From a virus, in IMG/VR virus record IMGVR_UViG_3300033149_003004, positions 18,656 through 82,655 of that record: DNA of 64,000 bases; one strand, 5' to 3'. The position numbers and the translations under genes are program-made. Numbering within the stretch: the first letter of the stretch is position 1; each line of letters starts with the position of its first letter. The notes below the pieces were generated by a model. That model did no database searches, was not told where the DNA came from, and was given only the letters and a program-made list of their open reading frames with translations. Below, in pieces: positions 2,999 through 61,834 of the stretch.

Positions 2999-4659
2999 TG
3001 TCCGAAGCTCTGGCCAAAGCGATTCGCAGGACATCGGCGATTGCATCACTTGCATTTGCATCGACCAGACAGGTTGGAGGAAGTTCTGGTGCCATTGATC
3101 TGGTCCCGTCCGATATGGCGTCCGGTTTGGATTCTTGGCAGAAGCAACAGGCGTATGCCCATCGCTACAGTCAGATGCGGGGCTGGGTATATTCGGCGAT
3201 CAACGCTCTGGCCAGTGAAGCGGCTGGGCAACATGCAGTCGTGGCCCGATTGAGTGGGGTGAAGCGGGAGCAGAAACCGAGAGGAAGCAAGCTCCTAGAA
3301 TTGACTCGTATGCCGCTGTCGACGCGGAGAAAGGCGGCTGAGCAGGAATACGAGATTCAGAGGGATCATCCTTTGGTGGATCTGTTGGAAAGACCCAACC
3401 CGATTCAAGAGCGATGGCAATTCGTCTATTCCTTTGTCGCTAATTTGGTGATCACTGGTTGGGCATACATTGTGCTTGGCAGGGCGAAGGGCAAGGACGG
3501 GAAGCTGGAGATGTACAGTCTCCCGACAACGTGGGTTAAACCTGTGCATGATAAGGGATCGTTCTCGTCTTTCGAGGTACGGAATCCGCGGGCAACGGGA
3601 GTGGAGCCGGCCATGCTGGATAGGAGTCAAGTGGGGTTTGCTCATTTACCGAACCCTGGTGATCCGATGGCGGCACTGGCTCCGGCGTCGACTCAAATGA
3701 TGGCGATCCGAGTAGACGATCACATTCAGACTTCTCAGGAGGCGTTCTTTCGGAACGGTATCTTCCCGAGTGTGATCATCACGATGGGTCAAGGGCCGTA
3801 TCAAGACACAAAAGGGAGGCCAGTATTGACGGGGGCCCAGCGCCGGCAGATCAACTTGGCTCTGAAGAAGCGGTGGGTTGGGGATGCGAATCAAGGAAAC
3901 GCCGCGATCATCGATGGCCTGATTGACAAAATTGAGCCTTGGTCCGTTTCGCATCGAGAAATGGGTTGGGAGCGTAGTGAGGAGAAAGTGAGGACACGGA
4001 TTCTCAGTGCATTCGGTGTCCATCCGTTCATCCTGGGAGAGGCTGTCGGAGTGGGAGGGTATGCCCAGGCCGTGATTATCCAGGAGCGGTTCCACAAGCG
4101 AGTGAACACATACTTGGAGATGCTCGGTAATCTGTTGACGAACTTGCTTGGTGGATTGGATGAAAGCGAGCGGATGATCGTTTGGTTTGAGCAATGCCGG
4201 GCTAGCGACAAATCGTTAAGGCAGACTTTGTTGCAATTCATGCGTTCCAATGGAGATATTTCGCAGAATGAGCTAAGAGCCGAGGCTGGCTTTCCGCCGG
4301 ATGAGGATTTGAATCAGGCTGTGATTCAGCCGAGTATGATGGCGGGGATTGCTCAGTTTCTTTCGCTGCTCGGAACTGGGCAGATGCAACGAGAACAAGC
4401 TGTTGTCGCTTTTGAGCTTATGGGCCTACCTTCCGGAGAGGCAGAGAAGCTTGCAGGTATGGGCTTGCCCAAGGCTGAGCCTCAGCCTCTGTTGGAAGGG
4501 CCAAAGCCGTCGAGCGAGGAAGAAAAACTGGGGGAAGAAGAGAAAAGCGAGGAGGCCATGGAAGAGCTGAAGATGGCAAACCTTCTGCTGGCCAGAGCGA
4601 TGGAAGCGTCCGAATGGCAAGCGGAGCGGATCTTGAGGAGTGTCGAGTGCTCTTGCTGA
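2998..4659 (+). CDS. Phage portal protein
   Basis: 553 residues. It would form the dodecameric portal through which DNA is packaged and ejected. Recognisable family patterns are the N-terminal MRGWVYSAINALA (about 58-70), DHPLVDLLERPNPIQ, FVANLVITGWAYIVLGR, and the central PSVIITMG and HPFILGEA..VGGYAQA segments typical of HK97-type portals. The C-terminal 100 residues are acidic and helical (SSEEEKLGEEEKSEE). I chose the ATG at 2998, which overlaps the upstream stop and follows GGAGGAGG. A GTG three bases earlier is possible but too close to that site. The end overlaps the minor head gene by 46 bases. Confidence 0.85.
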   Translation: MSEALAKAIRRTSAIASLAFASTRQVGGSSGAIDLVPSDMASGLDSWQKQQAYAHRYSQMRGWVYSAINALASEAAGQHAVVARLSGVKREQKPRGSKLLELTRMPLSTRRKAAEQEYEIQRDHPLVDLLERPNPIQERWQFVYSFVANLVITGWAYIVLGRAKGKDGKLEMYSLPTTWVKPVHDKGSFSSFEVRNPRATGVEPAMLDRSQVGFAHLPNPGDPMAALAPASTQMMAIRVDDHIQTSQEAFFRNGIFPSVIITMGQGPYQDTKGRPVLTGAQRRQINLALKKRWVGDANQGNAAIIDGLIDKIEPWSVSHREMGWERSEEKVRTRILSAFGVHPFILGEAVGVGGYAQAVIIQERFHKRVNTYLEMLGNLLTNLLGGLDESERMIVWFEQCRASDKSLRQTLLQFMRSNGDISQNELRAEAGFPPDEDLNQAVIQPSMMAGIAQFLSLLGTGQMQREQAVVAFELMGLPSGEAEKLAGMGLPKAEPQPLLEGPKPSSEEEKLGEEEKSEEAMEELKMANLLLARAMEASEWQAERILRSVECSC

Positions 4660-7127
4660 CCGACCGTCGAAAGCCGAGTATTGTTCAAATTCGCCGAAAA
4701 CTCACGGCCGTCCGCCGTCGCCGGTTTGAGCTGGCTGCGAAAAGCATGCGTCTGGTGCAAAAGGTGGTGGCTAATCGGCAGTTTATGTCCACCGAGCGGG
4801 AAGTGACGAAAGCTCTTATCCCGTTTTTTGTCGAGCAGGGACGTTCGATGGCTGCTCGGCTGCGGAGGATTGAGCAGAAGACTGTAGAGAATCTATGGAC
4901 GAAACGGACTTCTCTCGGCTCTGCTGCTGGCTTGATTCAGCTGATCTTTGATCCAAAAGAATGGCGTACCAATCTGACAAATCGTTTGTTGCCGGTACTA
5001 GCCCGAAAGATGGCAGAAGCTGGCGTGGCCCACCTGATGACGCTGGGAATCGACGTGCGGAGAAAGCAAAGGAAGAAGGGATTGAAGACCACTACTGCTG
5101 CGGATTGGGCTGAGGAGAACATTGCCGATTGGGATTCGCTTGTCGAGGCTTTTGAAGCTTCTAATCTACCAATGGGAATCATGAACGAGATTCCTACTTG
5201 GATGCAGGAGAGCATCGCTGAGAGACTCTCTGAGAGTTTTGCCGAAGATTACTGGGATTCGATTAGCAAGACGACGATGGGGGATGCCGAGAAAGTCTTG
5301 CGGCAGGGATTATCTGAAGGATGGTCGATCGGTGATATGGCTGGAGAGCTACGGCAGTATTTTGAGGAGGGAGGGTTTCGATATGCCCGACGCCGGTCGG
5401 AGAACATCGCCAGAACCGAGTCCGGGAATGCTCTGAACGCTGCTAGGAAGGGCAGCGTCGCTCGACTTCAGCAGGAATTGGGACCTGAAGTGCCGATGAA
5501 ACAATCGTGGCTTTCCGTGCTAGGCATTACAACGCGAGACACACACGCGGAGCTGGATGGTGTACCGGAGAATGAACGAGGAATGTGGGTCTTATCCGGT
5601 TACGAGATACCGTGGCCCGGACATATTAGCTTGCCTCCTTCGGAGCGCTGCAATTGCTTCCCTGCTGGAACGTTGGTGTCAGGAGATTTTGTCGGGGCGC
5701 AGAGAGCGTGGTACGAGGGGACATTCACCGAAATCATAACTGGCTCTGGGAGGAGGATCACCACAACCCCACAGCACCCAATAGTGACCTTGGAGGGACT
5801 TGTTCCGGCAGGCGAGGTCAAGCCAGGCCAGAAGGTCTTGGCCTATCGTCCGGAGGCTGATTTGCCGTCGGTGGTGGCTTCCCGTGGCGATGATGTAAAG
5901 AACGAACCAGTTGCGGTCGAGCAGCTTTTTGAGGCGTTTCTTGCCGGGACGGTTGCCGCCTCGTCCAGCATTGAAGTCAAACGCGCTCAGGTGGACGATT
6001 TCTATGGCGATGCGAAATCCTTTCAGGGCGATATCGAGATTGTACGGGCCAACTGGGGCCTGTTGGACGATGGGAAATTCGGCCAGTTTGAGAAACGTGG
6101 CAATTCTGTCCTCATCTGTGTGGATTCCGGTTTGGTTTTGGAATTTAGAGATCGCTCTTTTGGCCTTGCGTCTGGTCGGATCGGATCGTCCCCTTCTAGC
6201 GGTCCACGCCTTGCTGAGCCACTGCTTAGCTGCCTTCGATCTATCGCCAGCATCACGCCATCGGGCTCGCTGTCCGTCGGAGTAGCTGCGGATTTCCACG
6301 TTCGCCTCGATCAATCGTTGAGACAGGACGGCCCTGGAATATCCGGTTTCCTTCGAGAGTCGTTGGAGCGGTATGCCGGATTGGTACAGTTTGATGATGT
6401 GGTCGAGGTCAGGGATTTCTATTCTGCGGGTCATGTTTACGATCTCCAAAGCCGGTGGGGATTGGTGGTTGCTTCCGATCCATTATACACTGACAATCGT
6501 TTTCCTCCTAGTGGAATTGTCGTGTCGAATTGCCAGTGCAGTCTCACGATTGAGTTTGGGATGGACCCTGCCGAAGCCATGCAGAGGATAGAGGAGTATT
6601 GGCAACATGTAGAAGAATGGGAATCGAAAGGCTACGTGTGGCCTTGGCAGAAGTACAATCCGAACCGTGATCCTGCAACTGGAAGATTTGCTCCTGGCGG
6701 AGGTGGAGATGATGGAGGTGGAGCAAGCGGAAGGGAAGAGGGAAGAGCCGAGCGGGCGAGACGCGCACATAAGACAAGCACAGCAGAGAAGCAGAGGAGG
6801 GGAGAAGCAGAGCAAAAGCGGATGGCCAAGGCAATCGGGGGTGAGAACGATGGGGATAATAAACCATTCGATGTGATCGTGGGAGGGAAGCATGGGATTG
6901 AAGTCAAGACTGTGATGGATAACAACAACGATAAGATCACCGTGCATCCTGAATCTCGCCGGCGGAAGGAAGCTGCCGCCAAAAAGCAAAAGCTAAAGAT
7001 TCACACTATAGCTATTGATATTCGTGAGGGAAAGCGATCTTATTATTACAGGGAGGGGGTTGGAGCCTTCCGCCTCAAAAATATGGAGAAAGTATCGCTT
7101 CGGCAGTTGAAGGAGAAGTTCCGGTGA
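4614..7127 (+). CDS. Minor head protein (SPP1 gp7 type) with intein and C-terminal nuclease-like domain
   Basis: 837 residues as translated. Residues 1-347 are the gp7-type head morphogenesis domain, ending in the PPSERCN motif that normally continues as a Cys-rich NCxC element. An intein (residues 348-639, described separately) splits this motif. Splicing at N|C would restore SERCN-CQCSLTIEFG and give a 545-residue protein. The C-terminal part has a NPNRDPATGRFAPGG linker, a basic helix and a compact domain with FDVIV then GIEVKT, resembling a PD-(D/E)xK-type nuclease core (D, then E-x-K), followed by YYYREGVGAFRL. The gp7 and intein calls are firm; the nuclease reading is inference. The stop overlaps the next gene's GTG. 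Confidence 0.8.
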   Translation: MASGADLEECRVLLLTDRRKPSIVQIRRKLTAVRRRRFELAAKSMRLVQKVVANRQFMSTEREVTKALIPFFVEQGRSMAARLRRIEQKTVENLWTKRTSLGSAAGLIQLIFDPKEWRTNLTNRLLPVLARKMAEAGVAHLMTLGIDVRRKQRKKGLKTTTAADWAEENIADWDSLVEAFEASNLPMGIMNEIPTWMQESIAERLSESFAEDYWDSISKTTMGDAEKVLRQGLSEGWSIGDMAGELRQYFEEGGFRYARRRSENIARTESGNALNAARKGSVARLQQELGPEVPMKQSWLSVLGITTRDTHAELDGVPENERGMWVLSGYEIPWPGHISLPPSERCNCFPAGTLVSGDFVGAQRAWYEGTFTEIITGSGRRITTTPQHPIVTLEGLVPAGEVKPGQKVLAYRPEADLPSVVASRGDDVKNEPVAVEQLFEAFLAGTVAASSSIEVKRAQVDDFYGDAKSFQGDIEIVRANWGLLDDGKFGQFEKRGNSVLICVDSGLVLEFRDRSFGLASGRIGSSPSSGPRLAEPLLSCLRSIASITPSGSLSVGVAADFHVRLDQSLRQDGPGISGFLRESLERYAGLVQFDDVVEVRDFYSAGHVYDLQSRWGLVVASDPLYTDNRFPPSGIVVSNCQCSLTIEFGMDPAEAMQRIEEYWQHVEEWESKGYVWPWQKYNPNRDPATGRFAPGGGGDDGGGASGREEGRAERARRAHKTSTAEKQRRGEAEQKRMAKAIGGENDGDNKPFDVIVGGKHGIEVKTVMDNNNDKITVHPESRRRKEAAAKKQKLKIHTIAIDIREGKRSYYYREGVGAFRLKNMEKVSLRQLKEKFR
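5655..6530 (+). other. Intein in minor head protein (Hint domain, 292 residues)
   Basis: Begins at Cys (CFPAGTLVSGDFVGA, block A) and contains TTTPQHPIVT (block B, with TxxH), SAGHVYDLQS (block F) and GIVVSN|C (block G with terminal Asn and +1 Cys), so all residues for protein splicing are visible. It interrupts the conserved Cys-rich end of the gp7 domain. The 190 residues between blocks B and F have no LAGLIDADG motif; that stretch of DNA encodes a nuclease on the opposite strand. Splicing activity is inferred from the motifs. Confidence 0.85.
5679..6434 (-). CDS. Vsr/EDxHD-like homing endonuclease encoded antisense inside the intein
   Basis: 251 residues on the minus strand, the only convincing minus-strand gene seen. 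It starts at ATG (6434) with GGAG about nine bases upstream on that strand. Residues 1-45 form a helix-turn-helix (IKLYQSGIPLQRLSKETGYS). A basic linker follows, then a domain with VGPYNLDIAL, FRIAIEIVHLSAF, R..KKLLDRNWFVLYI, the layout of very-short-patch-repair-like (EDxHD) phage homing endonucleases. The gene lies wholly within the intein coding sequence, so both strands carry protein. Its C-terminal 40 residues oppose intein blocks A-B and may be only read-through. No antisense promoter was identified. Confidence 0.72.
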   Translation of the reverse strand: MTRRIEIPDLDHIIKLYQSGIPLQRLSKETGYSRAVLSQRLIEANVEIRSYSDGQRARWRDAGDRSKAAKQWLSKAWTARRGRSDPTRRKAKRAISKFQNQTGIHTDEDRIATFLKLAEFPIVQQAPVGPYNLDIALKGFRIAIEIVHLSAFDFNAGRGGNRPGKKRLKKLLDRNWFVLYIIATGSHHRRQISLRTIGQDLLAWLDLACRNKSLQGHYWVLWGCGDPPPRASYDFGECPLVPRSLRPDKIS

Positions 7128-55222: not shown

Positions 55223-55293
55223 CCATCGAAATACCGACTCCGTCGTCGAAACGGACGTAGGCTTGGAGTGACTACTGTGAAGGAAGTTGGGCT

Positions 55294-56985: not shown

Positions 56986-58362
56986 ATGGTGAAGGTGAAC
57001 GAGGCAAAAATCTACCGCGAATTCTTGGCGAAGAAGATCCAGGTTGGGATCGATGCCGGATTCAAGCCCCTGTGGATACCAGATTTTCTGTTCGGCTTTC
57101 AGCAGCTATTGGTTGAGTGGGCGATCCGGAAGGGCCGTGGGGCTATCTTCGCCGATTGTGGGCTTGGCAAGACACCCATATCGTTGGTTTGGGCGGAAAA
57201 TGTGGCCCGGAAAACGAACCGCCCGGTGCTGATATTGACGCCGCTTGCTGTGGCGCAGCAGTTCGTCCGCGAGGGGAGGAAGTTTGGCATAGAAGTGAAA
57301 CTTGCCCGCGATGGTAAGGTGAGGAATGGCATTAACGTTGTCAACTACCAACGTCTTCATTATTTCAATCCTGGTGATTTCGCTGGCTTAGTCTGTGATG
57401 AATCTGGCGTGTTGAAACATTACGATTCCAGAACCAGGGCAAATGTTGTGAGGTTTGCGTCTGCAATTCCATATAGACTACTTGGCACAGCCACGCCGGC
57501 ACCCAATGACTACATGGAGCTTGGCAACTCATCGGAGGTCTTGGGCGTAATGCGACACGCCCAAATGCTAGCAATGTTCTTCGTGAACGACAGTGACACA
57601 GTACAGCAGTGGAGATTGCGAGGACATGCCCAGCGCCAATTCTGGCGGTGGCTCGCTGGATGGGCCCGTGCCGTGCGGAAGCCCAGCGATTTGGGATTCG
57701 AGGATGGCCCGTTCATCTTGCCGGAACTGACTGTAGAGCAGCATTTAGTTCAGAGTGGGCGAAAGCCCGAAGGCTTGTTCGTGCTGCCGGCTGTTACTTG
57801 GCGAGAGCAGAGACAGGAGCGAAATTCTACGATCCGAAGTCGTTGCGAGAAGGTAGCGGAGTTGGCTCCGCAGGATAGACCGTTCATCGCTTGGTGCCAT
57901 CTGAACGCTGAAGGGGATTTGCTGGAGAAGCTGATTCCCGATGCTGTGCAGGTCAAGGGGGCTGATAGTGATGATCGGAAGGAGTCGGTGTTGAGTGATT
58001 TCGCTGAGGGAAACCTGCGAGTGCTGGTGACGAAGCCGAAGATCGGCGGTTTTGGATTGAACTTCCAGCATTGCTCTGACCTGAGCTACTTCCCCTCCTA
58101 TTCGTTTGAGCAATGGTATCAGGTGGTTCGGCGGTGCTGGAGGTTCGGACAGCAGCGACAAGTGAGTGTATCAGTTGTGGCGACAGAGGCGGAATCCAGG
58201 GTGAGCGATGCTATGTGGAGGAAGGAAAGACAGTCTATAAGATTGTATGATTCGATAATAAGGGAAATGGGTGAATTTCAGACTGTCGAGAAAATGCCTG
58301 TGGATGATACTGCTTCGGTGGGAAGTGTGAAGCTGCCTGTATGGTTGGGGAGTAAGGAATGA
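56986..58362 (+). CDS. DEAD/SNF2-type helicase paired with DNA methyltransferase
   Basis: 458 residues from the ATG at 56986. Motifs: FQQLLVEWAIRKGRGAIFADCGLGKTPISL (shown by GAIFADCGLGKTPISL, motif I), LILTPLAVAQQFVREG (Ia), LVCDESGVLK (II, DESG), RLLGTATPAPNDYMELG (III) and VLVTKPKIGGFGLNFQHC..QWYQVVRRCWRFGQQ (V/VI, seen as KIGGFGLNFQHC and RCWRFGQQ). The stop overlaps the methyltransferase start (ATGA). Such helicase plus methyltransferase pairs recur in phages, perhaps for modifying or remodelling phage DNA. Confidence 0.75.
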   Translation: MVKVNEAKIYREFLAKKIQVGIDAGFKPLWIPDFLFGFQQLLVEWAIRKGRGAIFADCGLGKTPISLVWAENVARKTNRPVLILTPLAVAQQFVREGRKFGIEVKLARDGKVRNGINVVNYQRLHYFNPGDFAGLVCDESGVLKHYDSRTRANVVRFASAIPYRLLGTATPAPNDYMELGNSSEVLGVMRHAQMLAMFFVNDSDTVQQWRLRGHAQRQFWRWLAGWARAVRKPSDLGFEDGPFILPELTVEQHLVQSGRKPEGLFVLPAVTWREQRQERNSTIRSRCEKVAELAPQDRPFIAWCHLNAEGDLLEKLIPDAVQVKGADSDDRKESVLSDFAEGNLRVLVTKPKIGGFGLNFQHCSDLSYFPSYSFEQWYQVVRRCWRFGQQRQVSVSVVATEAESRVSDAMWRKERQSIRLYDSIIREMGEFQTVEKMPVDDTASVGSVKLPVWLGSKE

Positions 58363-60320
58363 GCTCTATGCCAGTAAAGAAGCAGAAGGTGACGAAGGCT
58401 TTTGCTTTGTACTGCGGAGACTGCTGTGAAGTGCTACCGAATTTACCGGACGAATCTGTAGGGTTGTGTGTGTTCAGTCCGCCGTTTGCCGATTTGTATA
58501 CTTACACAGACGATCCGAAAGACATGAGCAATTGCCGATCCTACGACGAGTTTTTTGAACACTTCACATTTTTGGTGGAGCAACTGGAGCGGCTGATGAT
58601 GCCAGGTAGGATAGTTGCTGTTCATTGTATGGAGTTGTCATTGCACAAGTCTCGCGGAGAGGAAATTGGTATCAGGGACTTTCCCGGAGACATCGTACGA
58701 TGCTTTCTACGATTTGATTTCGTACAACACTCTCCTAGGATAACGATCTGGAAGGATCCATTGACAGCCGCTGTGCGAACGAAGGCGATCGGGTTGGCAC
58801 ACAAGCAAATCATCAAGGATTCGGCGTTTTGTCGCACTGGGATTCCGGATTACGTGATTGCATTTCGCAAACGCGGGGAGAATAGCGTTCCAGTGAAGCA
58901 CGAGCGAGGATTGACAGAGTACTATGGTTCCAGAAAAGTCCCTACTAAGCTGGATCGTTATCTCGTCGAAGATGTGGAGCAGAAGCATAATAAGCGTTCG
59001 CATTGGATATGGCAGCAGTATGCCAGCCCGGTATGGTCTGATATCCGGCAAACCTATGTGCTGGAGTATCGAGAAGCTAGGGACGGTGATGACGAGAAGC
59101 ATATATGCCTCGCTAGGGATAGCAGGGTGTTGGTGAAGAAGCGGGGATATGTGCCGATTCAGTTAGTGGAAACTAGTGATCGTGTCTTAACGCATAAGGG
59201 AAGGTGGCGGCGAGTGTTGGCTGTTGAATGTACCGGGATTAACCCAGTAGTTACAGTTCGTTCACAAGGAGTGCCCGGATTGACCGTTACTCCGGATCAT
59301 AAGTTGTGGGCCAGGAAATCTGATTGGATCCGGCAGCGTGATGGAGCGGAACGTGTGGATGCTACGTGGGTCGAAGCAGAGAATTGTTTGGGAAGTTATC
59401 TTAATTTGAAATTGCCGGAGGAAGAGGAGCCAATTAACCTCAATCCTCTGCATTGGTGGATAGTAGGTCGGTGGCTTGCTGATGGATGCTGGGGTGCTAA
59501 GGGAGAGGCGTTGATTGGTTGTGGTTACCATGAGTTAGGTAAATTGATCGACTGCTTGGGCGATCATGCTGGGACCGTCAGCGATTGCGGAACTGCAAAT
59601 CAGATTAGGTTGCGAGATCGGGGTGGTAAGGTTAGAGCTATTTTGGAGCGTTGTGGCATCGGAGCCGTTGGGAAGCATCTCCCTCCGGGGGCATTCACGT
59701 TGCCGTCGCGTTTGGCAAAATCGCTAGTCGATGGCTACCTCTCTGGGGATGGGCATTTGTTGGAGGATCGGCAGAGATGGACGGCCAGTAGCGTCAGCCG
59801 CGATCTTTTGATGGGCCTGGCTATGTTGATCCAGAGAGCTTACGGAAGTATTGCCAGTGTTTACGCGGGACGGCCTGCTAGGGAAGGCATGATCGAAGGA
59901 AGGCTTGTTCAATGCGAGCAAGAGTGGATATTGTCATTCGATTTGGTTGGGGATGGTCGACGCAAGCGGCAATTCATCGTAAATGATGGAGCCTGGAAAA
60001 AGGTTCGATCTGTCGAGGATGCTGGTCGATGTGAAACGTGGAATCTTAGGGTTGAGGAAGACGAAAGCTATACGGCAGAAGGGTGTGTCGTAAAAAACTG
60101 TCCACTACAGCTGGATGTGATCGAACGCTGTGTCGCATTGTGGAGTGCGAGAGGGGATGTTGTGCTGAGTCCCTTTATGGGAGTTGGCTCCGAGGTCTAC
60201 GTCGCTGTGAAGAATCATAGAAAGGCTATCGGCGTCGAATTGAAAGAGTCCTACTTCGACCAGGCTCTAAAGAATCTTGAGAGTTTAAGACGTTCTAGAG
60301 AGGTAAGGCTTAAGCCATGA
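58359..60320 (+). CDS. Intein-containing DNA methyltransferase
   Basis: 653 residues as translated. Exteins at 1-249 and 581-653. YCGDCCEVLPNLPDESVGLCVFSPPFADLYTYTD (seen as GLCVFSPPFADLY) is motif IV of a beta-class N4-cytosine or N6-adenine methyltransferase. The C-terminal extein CPLQLDVIERCV..DVVLSPFMGVGSEVYVAV is motif I (seen as SPFMGVGSEVY). The intein splits KHI|CPLQ, a conserved site. Spliced length is 322 residues. It overlaps the helicase gene and the clamp loader start. Likely protects phage DNA against restriction. Confidence 0.8.
   Translation: MSSMPVKKQKVTKAFALYCGDCCEVLPNLPDESVGLCVFSPPFADLYTYTDDPKDMSNCRSYDEFFEHFTFLVEQLERLMMPGRIVAVHCMELSLHKSRGEEIGIRDFPGDIVRCFLRFDFVQHSPRITIWKDPLTAAVRTKAIGLAHKQIIKDSAFCRTGIPDYVIAFRKRGENSVPVKHERGLTEYYGSRKVPTKLDRYLVEDVEQKHNKRSHWIWQQYASPVWSDIRQTYVLEYREARDGDDEKHICLARDSRVLVKKRGYVPIQLVETSDRVLTHKGRWRRVLAVECTGINPVVTVRSQGVPGLTVTPDHKLWARKSDWIRQRDGAERVDATWVEAENCLGSYLNLKLPEEEEPINLNPLHWWIVGRWLADGCWGAKGEALIGCGYHELGKLIDCLGDHAGTVSDCGTANQIRLRDRGGKVRAILERCGIGAVGKHLPPGAFTLPSRLAKSLVDGYLSGDGHLLEDRQRWTASSVSRDLLMGLAMLIQRAYGSIASVYAGRPAREGMIEGRLVQCEQEWILSFDLVGDGRRKRQFIVNDGAWKKVRSVEDAGRCETWNLRVEEDESYTAEGCVVKNCPLQLDVIERCVALWSARGDVVLSPFMGVGSEVYVAVKNHRKAIGVELKESYFDQALKNLESLRRSREVRLKP
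59106..60098 (+). other. Intein with LAGLIDADG endonuclease in methyltransferase
   Basis: 331 residues. It starts CLARDSRVLVKKRGYVPIQL and ends GCVVKN|C, with TVTPDHKLWA (block B) and DESYTAEGCVVKN (blocks F-G). Two LAGLIDADG motifs are visible, LHWWIVGRWLADGCWG and LAKSLVDGYLSGDGHLL. A full maxi-intein, so it may still home. Confidence 0.8.
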
Positions 60321-61834
60321 CGGAAGAACTCTATAAACGATATCGTCCGGCGAACTTCGGGGAAGTGATCGGGCAAGACGACGTGGTTCGGCAGTTGGTC
60401 GACTTCGGCCGAAGGCGACAAATACCTCACTTCTTACTGCTTGTTGGGCCTAGCGGTACGGGCAAAACGACGGTAGCTAGGATTCTCCGTAAGAAGATGG
60501 GCTGCGGGGATGTGGACTACAGGGAGATCAATGCCAGCGACTATCGCGGGATCGACATGGTGCGGGAGATTCGCTCCAACATGTCGTTGGCTCCGATCTC
60601 CGGCAAGTGCAGGATGTGGATGATTGATGAATGCTTCCCGGCTGGCACGGTGGTTTCGGTTGTGGGTGGGAAGAAGCCTATTGAGCGGGTACAGATGGGA
60701 GACCGAGTTTATACTGTAGATGGTATCTCTTGTGTCAAAAAAGTGTTTCAGAATGCAGTTACTTTGGATCGGCTTGTGCGATTGCATTTCAGTGATGGCA
60801 GGACGATTGTTACTACACGACAACACAGATTTTTGACGGAGGAAGGTTGGGTTGAGGCTGGTGATCTGGATATTGGATTGGGTATTTATAGAGTTGGCGA
60901 TTCCGACAAGGGTTCCGAAAGGCATGGGATATCCGACTTGCTACAAAGCCGACATTGGGAGCAGGAAACGCAGATTGGTAATCGAGGTCGATGGGAATGG
61001 CCATCGGTCGAAAAAGGCTATATCGCTAGACAGAAAGAAAACCCATCGGCTCGAGCAGTTAGGGTGGACTGTGTTGAGATTTACAAACCAGGATGTAATG
61101 ATGAATCTTTCGCGGGTGTTGTCGGAGATTCAGAGCGTCGTTCAGGTTTGGTGACGTTCTATGATTTGCAGGTTGCTGGTCACCCATCCTATTTTGTAGA
61201 AGGATTGCCTGTGCACAATTGCCATCAGCTTACTTCGGATGCTCAGAATGGACTCCTTAAGATCTTGGAAGACACTCCACCTCATTGTTATTTTGTCCTG
61301 TCCACAACTGACCCGCAAAAGCTCAAGCGGACGATTATTACGCGAGCAACACAACTCAACTTTCGCTTGTTGTCAAGTAAGGATCTGAGGCAGGTGATTG
61401 ATGACGTAGTAGAGAAAGAGAAGACATCGCTGTCTGACGAAGTCATGGATCGACTGGTTGATGTTGCGGAAGGCTCGGCGCGCAAAGCACTAGTTTTGCT
61501 CCATTCGATAATAGGGATGAAGACGGAGGACGATCAATTACAAGCGATAGCCAAAGGGGACTTCAAAGCGAAGTCGATTGAGCTAGCAAGGCTTTTGATG
61601 AAGCCTGGGGCGAATTGGGCGGAAGTCTCTGCTCTGCTGAAGGGGATGGACGAGGAGGTGGAGCAGATGCGATACATGGTGTTGGGCTATTGCCGATCCG
61701 TGCTGCTCGGAGGGGGAAGGATGGCGAGGCGGGCTGCTGCTGTGATTGACCGCTTCCAGGATGCGATGTATGAATCCAAAGCTGCTGGCTTCGCTTTGGC
61801 TTGTTGGGATGTACTGAATCCACCGAGGGAATAG
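60317..61834 (+). CDS. Clamp loader subunit with intein in Walker B
   Basis: 505 residues as translated, start overlapping the methyltransferase stop. Loader exteins: LYKRYRPANFGEVIGQDDVV, LLLVGPSGTGKTTVARIL (Walker A, about 39-56) and, after splicing at MWMIDE|CHQLT, the Walker B DECHQ, LKILEDTPPHCYFVLSTT, RTIITRATQLNF (sensor/SRC). Spliced length 309 residues. It loads the clamp at 52742. An intein in this catalytic motif makes activity depend on splicing. The C-terminal part is a helical collar (SKDLRQVIDDVVEKEK..). Confidence 0.85.
   Translation: MTEELYKRYRPANFGEVIGQDDVVRQLVDFGRRRQIPHFLLLVGPSGTGKTTVARILRKKMGCGDVDYREINASDYRGIDMVREIRSNMSLAPISGKCRMWMIDECFPAGTVVSVVGGKKPIERVQMGDRVYTVDGISCVKKVFQNAVTLDRLVRLHFSDGRTIVTTRQHRFLTEEGWVEAGDLDIGLGIYRVGDSDKGSERHGISDLLQSRHWEQETQIGNRGRWEWPSVEKGYIARQKENPSARAVRVDCVEIYKPGCNDESFAGVVGDSERRSGLVTFYDLQVAGHPSYFVEGLPVHNCHQLTSDAQNGLLKILEDTPPHCYFVLSTTDPQKLKRTIITRATQLNFRLLSSKDLRQVIDDVVEKEKTSLSDEVMDRLVDVAEGSARKALVLLHSIIGMKTEDDQLQAIAKGDFKAKSIELARLLMKPGANWAEVSALLKGMDEEVEQMRYMVLGYCRSVLLGGGRMARRAAAVIDRFQDAMYESKAAGFALACWDVLNPPRE
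60632..61219 (+). other. Mini-intein in clamp loader
   Basis: 196 residues. CFPAGTVVSVVGGKKPIERV (block A), TTRQHRFLTEEGW (block B) and FYDLQVAGHPSYFVEGLPVHN|C (blocks F-G) are intact. No LAGLIDADG motif is present in its own frame. A separate open frame with a Vsr/DUF559-like nuclease core runs through its middle (next entry). Confidence 0.8.
60852..61154 (+). CDS. Vsr/DUF559-like nuclease in overlapping frame inside intein
   Basis: 100 residues in the +1 frame relative to the intein. Start TTG 60852 with GGAGGA eight bases before it. ATG at 60924 is the alternative. GYPTCYKADIGSRKRRLVIEVDGNGHRS and RLEQLGWTVLRFTNQDVMMN are the nuclease core (seen as RRLVIEVDGNGH and LEQLGWTVLRFTNQ) found in phage homing endonucleases. 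It may be an independent product or the remnant of a frame-shifted fused endonuclease. Short and possibly inactive. Confidence 0.6.
   Translation: MRLVIWILDWVFIELAIPTRVPKGMGYPTCYKADIGSRKRRLVIEVDGNGHRSKKAISLDRKKTHRLEQLGWTVLRFTNQDVMMNLSRVLSEIQSVVQVW

What the first reader, a model, noticed from the sequence alone, without database searches (positions are those of the whole stretch)
60852..61154. Second nuclease nested in an intein, this time in an overlapping same-strand frame
The clamp loader mini-intein is complete in its own frame, yet its middle encodes a GYPT..YK.DI...IEVDGNGH...GW.V.RFTN core in the +1 frame with a good ribosome binding site at a TTG. Two unrelated inteins in this genome therefore both seem to hide a Vsr-like nuclease in an alternative frame. 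It may be a true double-coding gene, a relic of a fused endonuclease after two compensating frameshifts, or an independently inserted gene that kept the host frame open.
Basis: partly seen in the sequence, partly recalled or inferred. Interest (0 to 1): 0.8.

Follow-up and report, generated by a model that had tools for sequence, protein, structure and literature searches.

The report
Homing nuclease gene overlapping an intein
A self-splicing insert in a phage DNA-replication gene also carries, in a shifted reading of the same DNA letters, the catalytic half of a gene-copying nuclease; about 150 unique viral relatives use the same +1 double-coding layout, so it is a real and apparently undescribed class of mobile element, of which this copy has lost its DNA-binding half.

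Summary
Confirmed, and wider than claimed. The clamp loader (60317-61834) carries an intein at Walker B (DE|C...HN|C, 60632-61219). The +1 ORF 60852-61154 is a genuine EDxHD/Vsr-like (DUF559) nuclease: Pfam E=7e-15, AlphaFold pLDDT 93.6, best PDB fold hit I-Bth0305I. The same DNA read in the intein frame is disordered between two confident Hint halves. Of 159 unique relatives, 148 have the nuclease inside a longer open frame, always +1, nearly all with both intein junctions (helicases, clamp loaders, terminase-like genes). Host-frame stops are purged (about 10 expected per gene, none seen), substitutions fall on the nuclease wobble base, and intein plus nuclease move as a block; empty, HEG-less and full alleles exist at one Vibrio phage site. 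Most likely a homing endonuclease gene nested in the intein and translated from its own internal start. The window copy is the only short one: it lacks the zinc-finger DNA-binding half, so it is probably decaying. A second intein in this phage hides an antisense nuclease. Only two alternative frames let any protein keep the host frame open; these two nucleases use exactly those.

The parts
60317..61834 (+). DNA polymerase clamp loader (AAA+) host gene, interrupted by the intein at Walker B (IDE|C...HN|CHQ)
   Evidence: PHROG 5846 clamp loader E=4e-58; Pfam DNA_pol3_delta2
60632..61219 (+). Intein, 196 aa, C1 to N196, followed by Cys+1 (61220-61222)
   Evidence: Pfam Intein_splicing and PT-HINT matches; all splicing residues present; Hint halves predicted at pLDDT about 97
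60632..60895 (+). N-terminal Hint half of the intein (blocks A-B)
   Evidence: pLDDT about 97 for residues 1-80
60896..61051 (+). In-frame intein linker; disordered as protein, it is the shadow of the nuclease gene
   Evidence: pLDDT about 47-56 for residues 91-140
61052..61219 (+). C-terminal Hint part (strand RVDCVEIYK, blocks F-G)
   Evidence: pLDDT 88-97
60852..61154 (+). Overlapping +1-frame EDxHD/Vsr-like nuclease ORF, 100 aa, TTG start; N-terminal DNA-binding half missing
   Evidence: DUF559 E=7e-15; 3hrl and 3r3p; pLDDT 93.6
60882..61145 (+). Part of the nuclease ORF homologous to the family (HMM positions 164-251 of 264)
   Evidence: family HMM E=4e-40
60838..60842 (+). GGAGG, Shine-Dalgarno-like, 9 nt before the TTG; also codes the intein's TEEGW segment
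60887..60892 (+). Inferred deletion junction (intein ...GIY|RVG...), where roughly 100 to 170 codons present in relatives are missing
   Evidence: host-frame alignment A6; intein 196 aa against a median of 320
61062..61085 (+). Truly dual-coded stretch: nuclease GWTVLRFT over intein VDCVEIY
   Evidence: alignments; conservation in both frames among relatives

Best explanation
This is a mobile intein whose homing endonuclease is not a fused domain but a separate gene nested in the +1 frame of the intein's linker. In intact relatives the gene has its own ATG, often with a ribosome-binding site, inside the intein and encodes zinc-finger-like DNA-binding modules plus a C-terminal EDxHD/Vsr-like nuclease. 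The host gene is translated through the same DNA in the other frame, giving a disordered loop between the two Hint halves, which splice out of the protein. The nuclease is inferred to cut intein-free alleles at the Walker B coding sequence (GATGARTGYCAY...), and repair copies the whole intein. The intein frame stays open because every stop in it would need T at the nuclease's wobble base, and NNT to NNC is always synonymous. In the window an in-phase deletion removed the nuclease's start and DNA-binding half, leaving an intact, potentially translated catalytic core in a still splice-competent intein: most likely a homing gene in decay. Shown: homology, frame, selection pattern in relatives, mobility signature, truncation. 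Inferred: splicing, translation, cutting, loss of homing.
For: Nuclease identity and fold. Intein with disorder in the overlap. Census: 148 of 159 unique relatives overlapped, all +1; 137 of 149 with both junctions by regular expression; 12 more clear cases in bacterial genome contigs. Purged stops: 2338 of 2338 at-risk wobbles are C, against 75 of 220 in non-overlapped relatives. Substitutions on the nuclease wobble in the overlap and on host position 3 outside it; nuclease aa identity at or above host-frame identity in all 49 pairs, scored greater in 49. Shine-Dalgarno of 5 nt or more at 44 of 143 first ATGs, against 4-6% of control Met codons. Homing: in the closest pairs intein plus nuclease are mostly 95-99% identical while exteins are 75-96% identical; empty, HEG-less and full alleles at the same Vibrio phage site. 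Truncation: the window is the only one of 149 lacking the N-terminal half without a contig end.
Against: No experiment: splicing, translation and cutting are inferred. All catalytic and invariant positions are intact in the window copy and it is predicted as a complete fold with a plausible start, so it might still act as a small nuclease. No close relative of the window copy was found, so selection on it cannot be measured. The 159 loci were picked by similarity to this nuclease, so 148 of 159 is not the overlap rate of the wider EDxHD family. Below about 70% nucleotide identity the pairwise counts lean on a nuclease-frame alignment; at 90% or more they do not.
Confidence: 0.87

Rival explanations
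1. The 100-aa window nuclease is not decaying but a functional minimal nuclease, translated from the TTG with GGAGG, relying on a partner or on the intein for DNA binding.
For: All invariant residues kept; complete fold at pLDDT 93.6 with an N-terminal helix starting right after the TTG; GGAGG 9 nt upstream.
Against: No other member with a complete 5' end lacks the DNA-binding half; no separate DNA-binding half elsewhere in the window and only one nuclease of this family in the whole record; GGAGG is also part of the intein's codons.
Confidence: 0.25
2. Remains of an endonuclease once fused in frame to the intein, displaced by two compensating frameshifts.
For: Canonical inteins carry in-frame endonucleases at this position (established knowledge).
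Against: Full-length intact nucleases sit in +1 in all 148 overlapped relatives, none in frame; start codons with Shine-Dalgarno sites.
Confidence: 0.02
3. Expression by programmed frameshifting, giving an N-intein-nuclease fusion instead of independent initiation.
For: The frame offset is always +1, as a programmed frameshift would need.
Against: Nuclease frames commonly have an ATG just before the first CxxC motif, with enriched Shine-Dalgarno sites. A conserved slippery site was not looked for.
Confidence: 0.06
4. Coincidental open frame with a chance DUF559 match.
For: Long alternative ORFs do occur by chance.
Against: E=4e-40 to the family, a predicted fold at pLDDT 93.6 and conserved architecture.
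Confidence: 0.002

Closest known systems
[quoted passage not shown]
   Same: An endonuclease hidden in an alternative frame of an insertion that keeps the host frame open; disjunct, homing-like distribution; internal GTG start proposed.
   Different: HNH rather than EDxHD/Vsr; the insertion has no intein splicing domain and is thought not to be spliced out; the paper places it in the third frame; methylase hosts; described for few phage clusters.
EDxHD/Vsr-like homing endonucleases: I-Bth0305I (PDB 3r3p) and the family of Dassa et al. 2009 (not held; cited in PMC12350094)
   Same: Nuclease fold and E, D, H, D motif; best fold hit; mobile elements.
   Different: I-Bth0305I is named a mobile intron protein; the Dassa family is tied to split inteins in fractured genes; neither is described in the held texts as a gene overlapping an intact intein.
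Canonical large inteins with an in-frame LAGLIDADG or HNH domain
   Same: Hint splicing domain with an endonuclease between blocks B and F; homing cycle of full, HEG-less and empty alleles.
   Different: Here the endonuclease is a separate gene in another frame, so it is not a domain of the spliced-out intein.
CapR-like plus EDxHD/Vsr HEGs of phage group II introns (PMC12350094)
   Same: N-terminal DNA-binding modules followed by a C-terminal EDxHD/Vsr-like nuclease of about 100 aa.
   Different: Encoded in group II introns; no splice-competent protein is described as overlapping them.

Membership tests
Intein (Hint) | C1, TxxH (block B), HN and Cys+1 (block G) | tested here: met
   CFPAGT, TTRQH, VHN|C; invariant C1, H65, N196
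Intein (Hint) | Hint fold | tested here: met
   two halves at pLDDT about 97 by AlphaFold; Pfam Intein_splicing E=4e-7, 30.3 bits, just under the gathering score of 35.8; PT-HINT above its cut-off. No fold search of the intein model was run.
Intein (Hint) | protein splicing activity | not testable with these tools
   needs expression
Canonical homing intein | endonuclease domain in the intein's own frame | tested here: not met
   nuclease always in +1; in-frame middle disordered
EDxHD/Vsr-like homing endonuclease | catalytic pattern D34, E45, D47, H51, D60 and GWxVxRFxN | tested here: met
   invariant or nearly invariant over 63 relatives and present in the window copy
EDxHD/Vsr-like homing endonuclease | nuclease fold | tested here: met
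   3r3p is the best fold hit, Foldseek E=1.8e-3, prob 1.00, TM 0.58
EDxHD/Vsr-like homing endonuclease | DNA-binding modules for site specificity | tested here: not met
   absent in the window copy, present in relatives with a complete 5' end
EDxHD/Vsr-like homing endonuclease | site-specific cleavage | not testable with these tools
   needs protein
ShiLan-type hidden endonuclease | insertion without a splicing domain, HNH nuclease | tested here: not met
   intein motifs present; nuclease is DUF559/EDxHD
Split intein / fractured gene | host gene broken into two genes | tested here: not met
   single 505-aa ORF
Overlapping gene pair | both frames open beyond chance and selection visible in the inner frame | tested here: met
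   (inner-frame selection shown for relatives, not for the window copy itself)

The most novel reading that the evidence does not exclude
There is an unrecognised, widespread class of mobile inteins whose homing endonuclease is a separate overlapping gene, and the genetic code sets which frame it may use: of the five alternative frames only same-strand +1 and codon-aligned antisense let any protein be encoded while the host frame stays open, and the two hidden nucleases of this one phage occupy exactly those two frames.
Probability: 0.75. Interest if true: 0.88.

Novelty: new variant of a known kind. Interest (0 to 1): 0.82.

Why it matters
Inteins are thought to move by endonuclease domains fused in their own frame. 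Here is a large set of inteins, in phages of several hosts and inserted at Walker B of several kinds of P-loop NTPase, in which the endonuclease is a separate gene nested in another frame. Annotation misses it: the phage records inspected list only the helicase or head protein at the site. It shows how overlapping genes can arise at little cost, by synonymous wobble changes alone, gives a testable code-based rule for frame choice, and means that some apparently HEG-free inteins may still be mobile.

Tried and rejected
In-frame fusion and compensating-frameshift origin: no in-frame relative in 159. A second copy of this nuclease family in the window or in the rest of the record: none. A missing DNA-binding half encoded separately: only a non-significant hit at 55261 (E=0.86). 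Close relatives of the window's intein: only short matches at 58-67% identity, so selection on the window copy itself could not be tested. P0004 gave no viral contigs relatives with single-sequence patterns, but tblastn on phage records did. A +1 ORF at 5911-6285 in the other intein has no family match. Freestanding relatives fall inside the overlapped clade (FastTree, several weak supports), so they look like escapes rather than ancestors, but this was not tested formally.

Full report
What is there. The window lies in an 82,655-base IMG/VR virus record. ORF 60317-61834 is a phage clamp loader (PHROG 5846, E=4e-58) interrupted after Asp-Glu of Walker B by a 196-residue intein (C1 at 60632, N196 at 61217-61219, Cys+1 at 61220). 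The +1 ORF 60852-61154 matches Pfam DUF559 (E=7.2e-15) and, below its cut-off, MTES_1575; a profile of its relatives matches PDB 3hrl (1.6e-13) and 3r3p, I-Bth0305I (2e-4). AlphaFold gives 93.6 mean pLDDT for the 100 residues, with 3r3p as first fold match. The intein read in its own frame is predicted as two Hint halves at about 97 and a stretch of about 50 residues at about 50: the disordered part lies within the stretch that codes for the nuclease.

It is a family, and the frame never varies. Searching phage records with the nuclease alone hit genes annotated as helicases in Vibrio, Pseudomonas and Corynebacterium phages; in the six inspected, a 215-263 codon nuclease frame lies in +1 inside an intein. 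Viral-contig scans plus these gave 159 unique sequences; 148 have a host frame open across the whole nuclease, in +1, none in frame and none in the other same-strand frame except one distant DUF559 hit; the rest are not overlapped, and some of those are distant DUF559 proteins. Simple patterns find both junctions (DE|C and HN|C) in 137 of 149 including the window. Hosts among the 122 that could be cut cleanly: 98 helicase-like, 20 clamp loaders including the window, and a few others such as terminase-like genes. Twelve clear cases occur in bacterial genome contigs; a thirteenth, L280, is partial.

Selection. With the nuclease protein fixed and its synonymous codons permuted, about 10 host-frame stops are expected per gene and none are seen, while the other frame has 17.4 against 16.1 expected. 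At codons whose next codon starts AA, AG or GA, 2338 of 2338 pyrimidine wobbles are C in overlapped genes and 75 of 220 in the others. In 49 pairs the substitutions in the overlap fall 50% on the nuclease wobble (host position 1), whereas downstream host-only sequence has 52% on host position 3; nuclease identity exceeds host-frame identity in every pair. In the 12 pairs at 90% identity or more the counts sum to 69, 76 and 237 for nuclease positions 1, 2 and 3. The nuclease frame is therefore the protein-coding frame in the overlap, and the intein frame is kept open. Towards the 3' end both are conserved: GWxVLRF of the nuclease overlaps the RVDSVEI strand of the intein, and host identity rises from 0.61 to 0.77 there.

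Mobility. In the most similar pairs, intein plus nuclease are mostly 95-99% identical while flanking exteins are 75-96%, as expected for recent transfer of the whole unit. One Vibrio phage helicase site exists empty (PS17B.1), with an intein lacking the nuclease (K459, PS65A.1, 268E42.1) and with the full element (1.088.O, 1.194.O). Distances of nuclease, intein and extein correlate (r 0.51-0.67).

Expression. 44 of 143 first ATGs of the nuclease frame have a Shine-Dalgarno match of 5 nt or more, against 4-6% of control methionines. This favours independent internal initiation; it is inference.

The window copy. It begins at family position 164 of 264, the only short member not cut by a contig end, and its intein is the shortest (196 against a median of 320). 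The alignment places a clean gap after GIY, so an in-phase deletion is inferred to have removed start, zinc fingers and linker. All catalytic residues remain. I read this as a homing gene in decay with a still splice-competent intein; a residual small nuclease is the main rival.

A second hidden nuclease. The antisense ORF 5682-6449 inside the intein of the MuF-like head gene encodes a helix-turn-helix-like segment and a GPYNLD...IAIEI nuclease-like core (by eye, no family match). tblastn finds it in 63 phage records; in all five first inspected it lies antisense to a large gene, annotated as head morphogenesis or minor capsid in three of them. It contains no TTA, CTA or TCA codon in 11 of 11 sequences, and antisense identity exceeds sense identity in the close pairs that differ, though both frames are constrained there and the evidence is weaker. 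In one of the five (L299) the frame script picked the wrong sense ORF, so that case rests on the annotation.

Code rule. Only +1 on the same strand and codon-aligned antisense have no residue or dipeptide that forces a host stop; the other three frames are forced closed by pairs such as Met-Lys, Phe-Lys or Asp-Tyr, and only 17-32% of random 200-residue proteins can be accommodated there. 138 of 149 family members would be impossible in +2 without protein change.

Literature. Eight searches of an open-access library found one close precedent, the ShiLan domain (PMC11855218), which is not an intein and is HNH. The paper defining the EDxHD family with split inteins (10.1093/nar/gkp095) is not held, so an earlier description outside the library cannot be excluded.

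Noticed in passing
window 5682-6449 (-): Antisense ORF with a helix-turn-helix-like segment and an EDxHD-like core inside the intein of the MuF-like head gene 4614-7127; relatives lie antisense in head genes of Pseudomonas, Gordonia, Vibrio and Cronobacter phages. The in-frame motif DFHGD of these inteins appears to be the shadow of the nuclease's VAVEV.
   Followed up: partly
window 58359-60320 (+): DNA methyltransferase just upstream carries another intein, with what looks by eye like an in-frame LAGLIDADG-type endonuclease (DGYLSGDGH), so canonical and hidden designs sit side by side.
   Followed up: no
L050 3611-4264 and 4254-6074: Free-standing relative of the nuclease directly upstream of an intein-free terminase-like gene (DE|LAQ); its sisters are nested in terminase-like inteins L079 and L085. 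Possible escape from the intein.
   Followed up: partly
L291, L293, L294 against L012, L014, L292: Vibrio phage helicase site with intein lacking the nuclease, intein with nuclease, and empty alleles: a natural system for a homing test.
   Followed up: partly
L092/L094, L060/L077, L204/L205, L012/L014: Sharp identity steps at intein borders indicate recent transfers of intein plus nuclease.
   Followed up: yes
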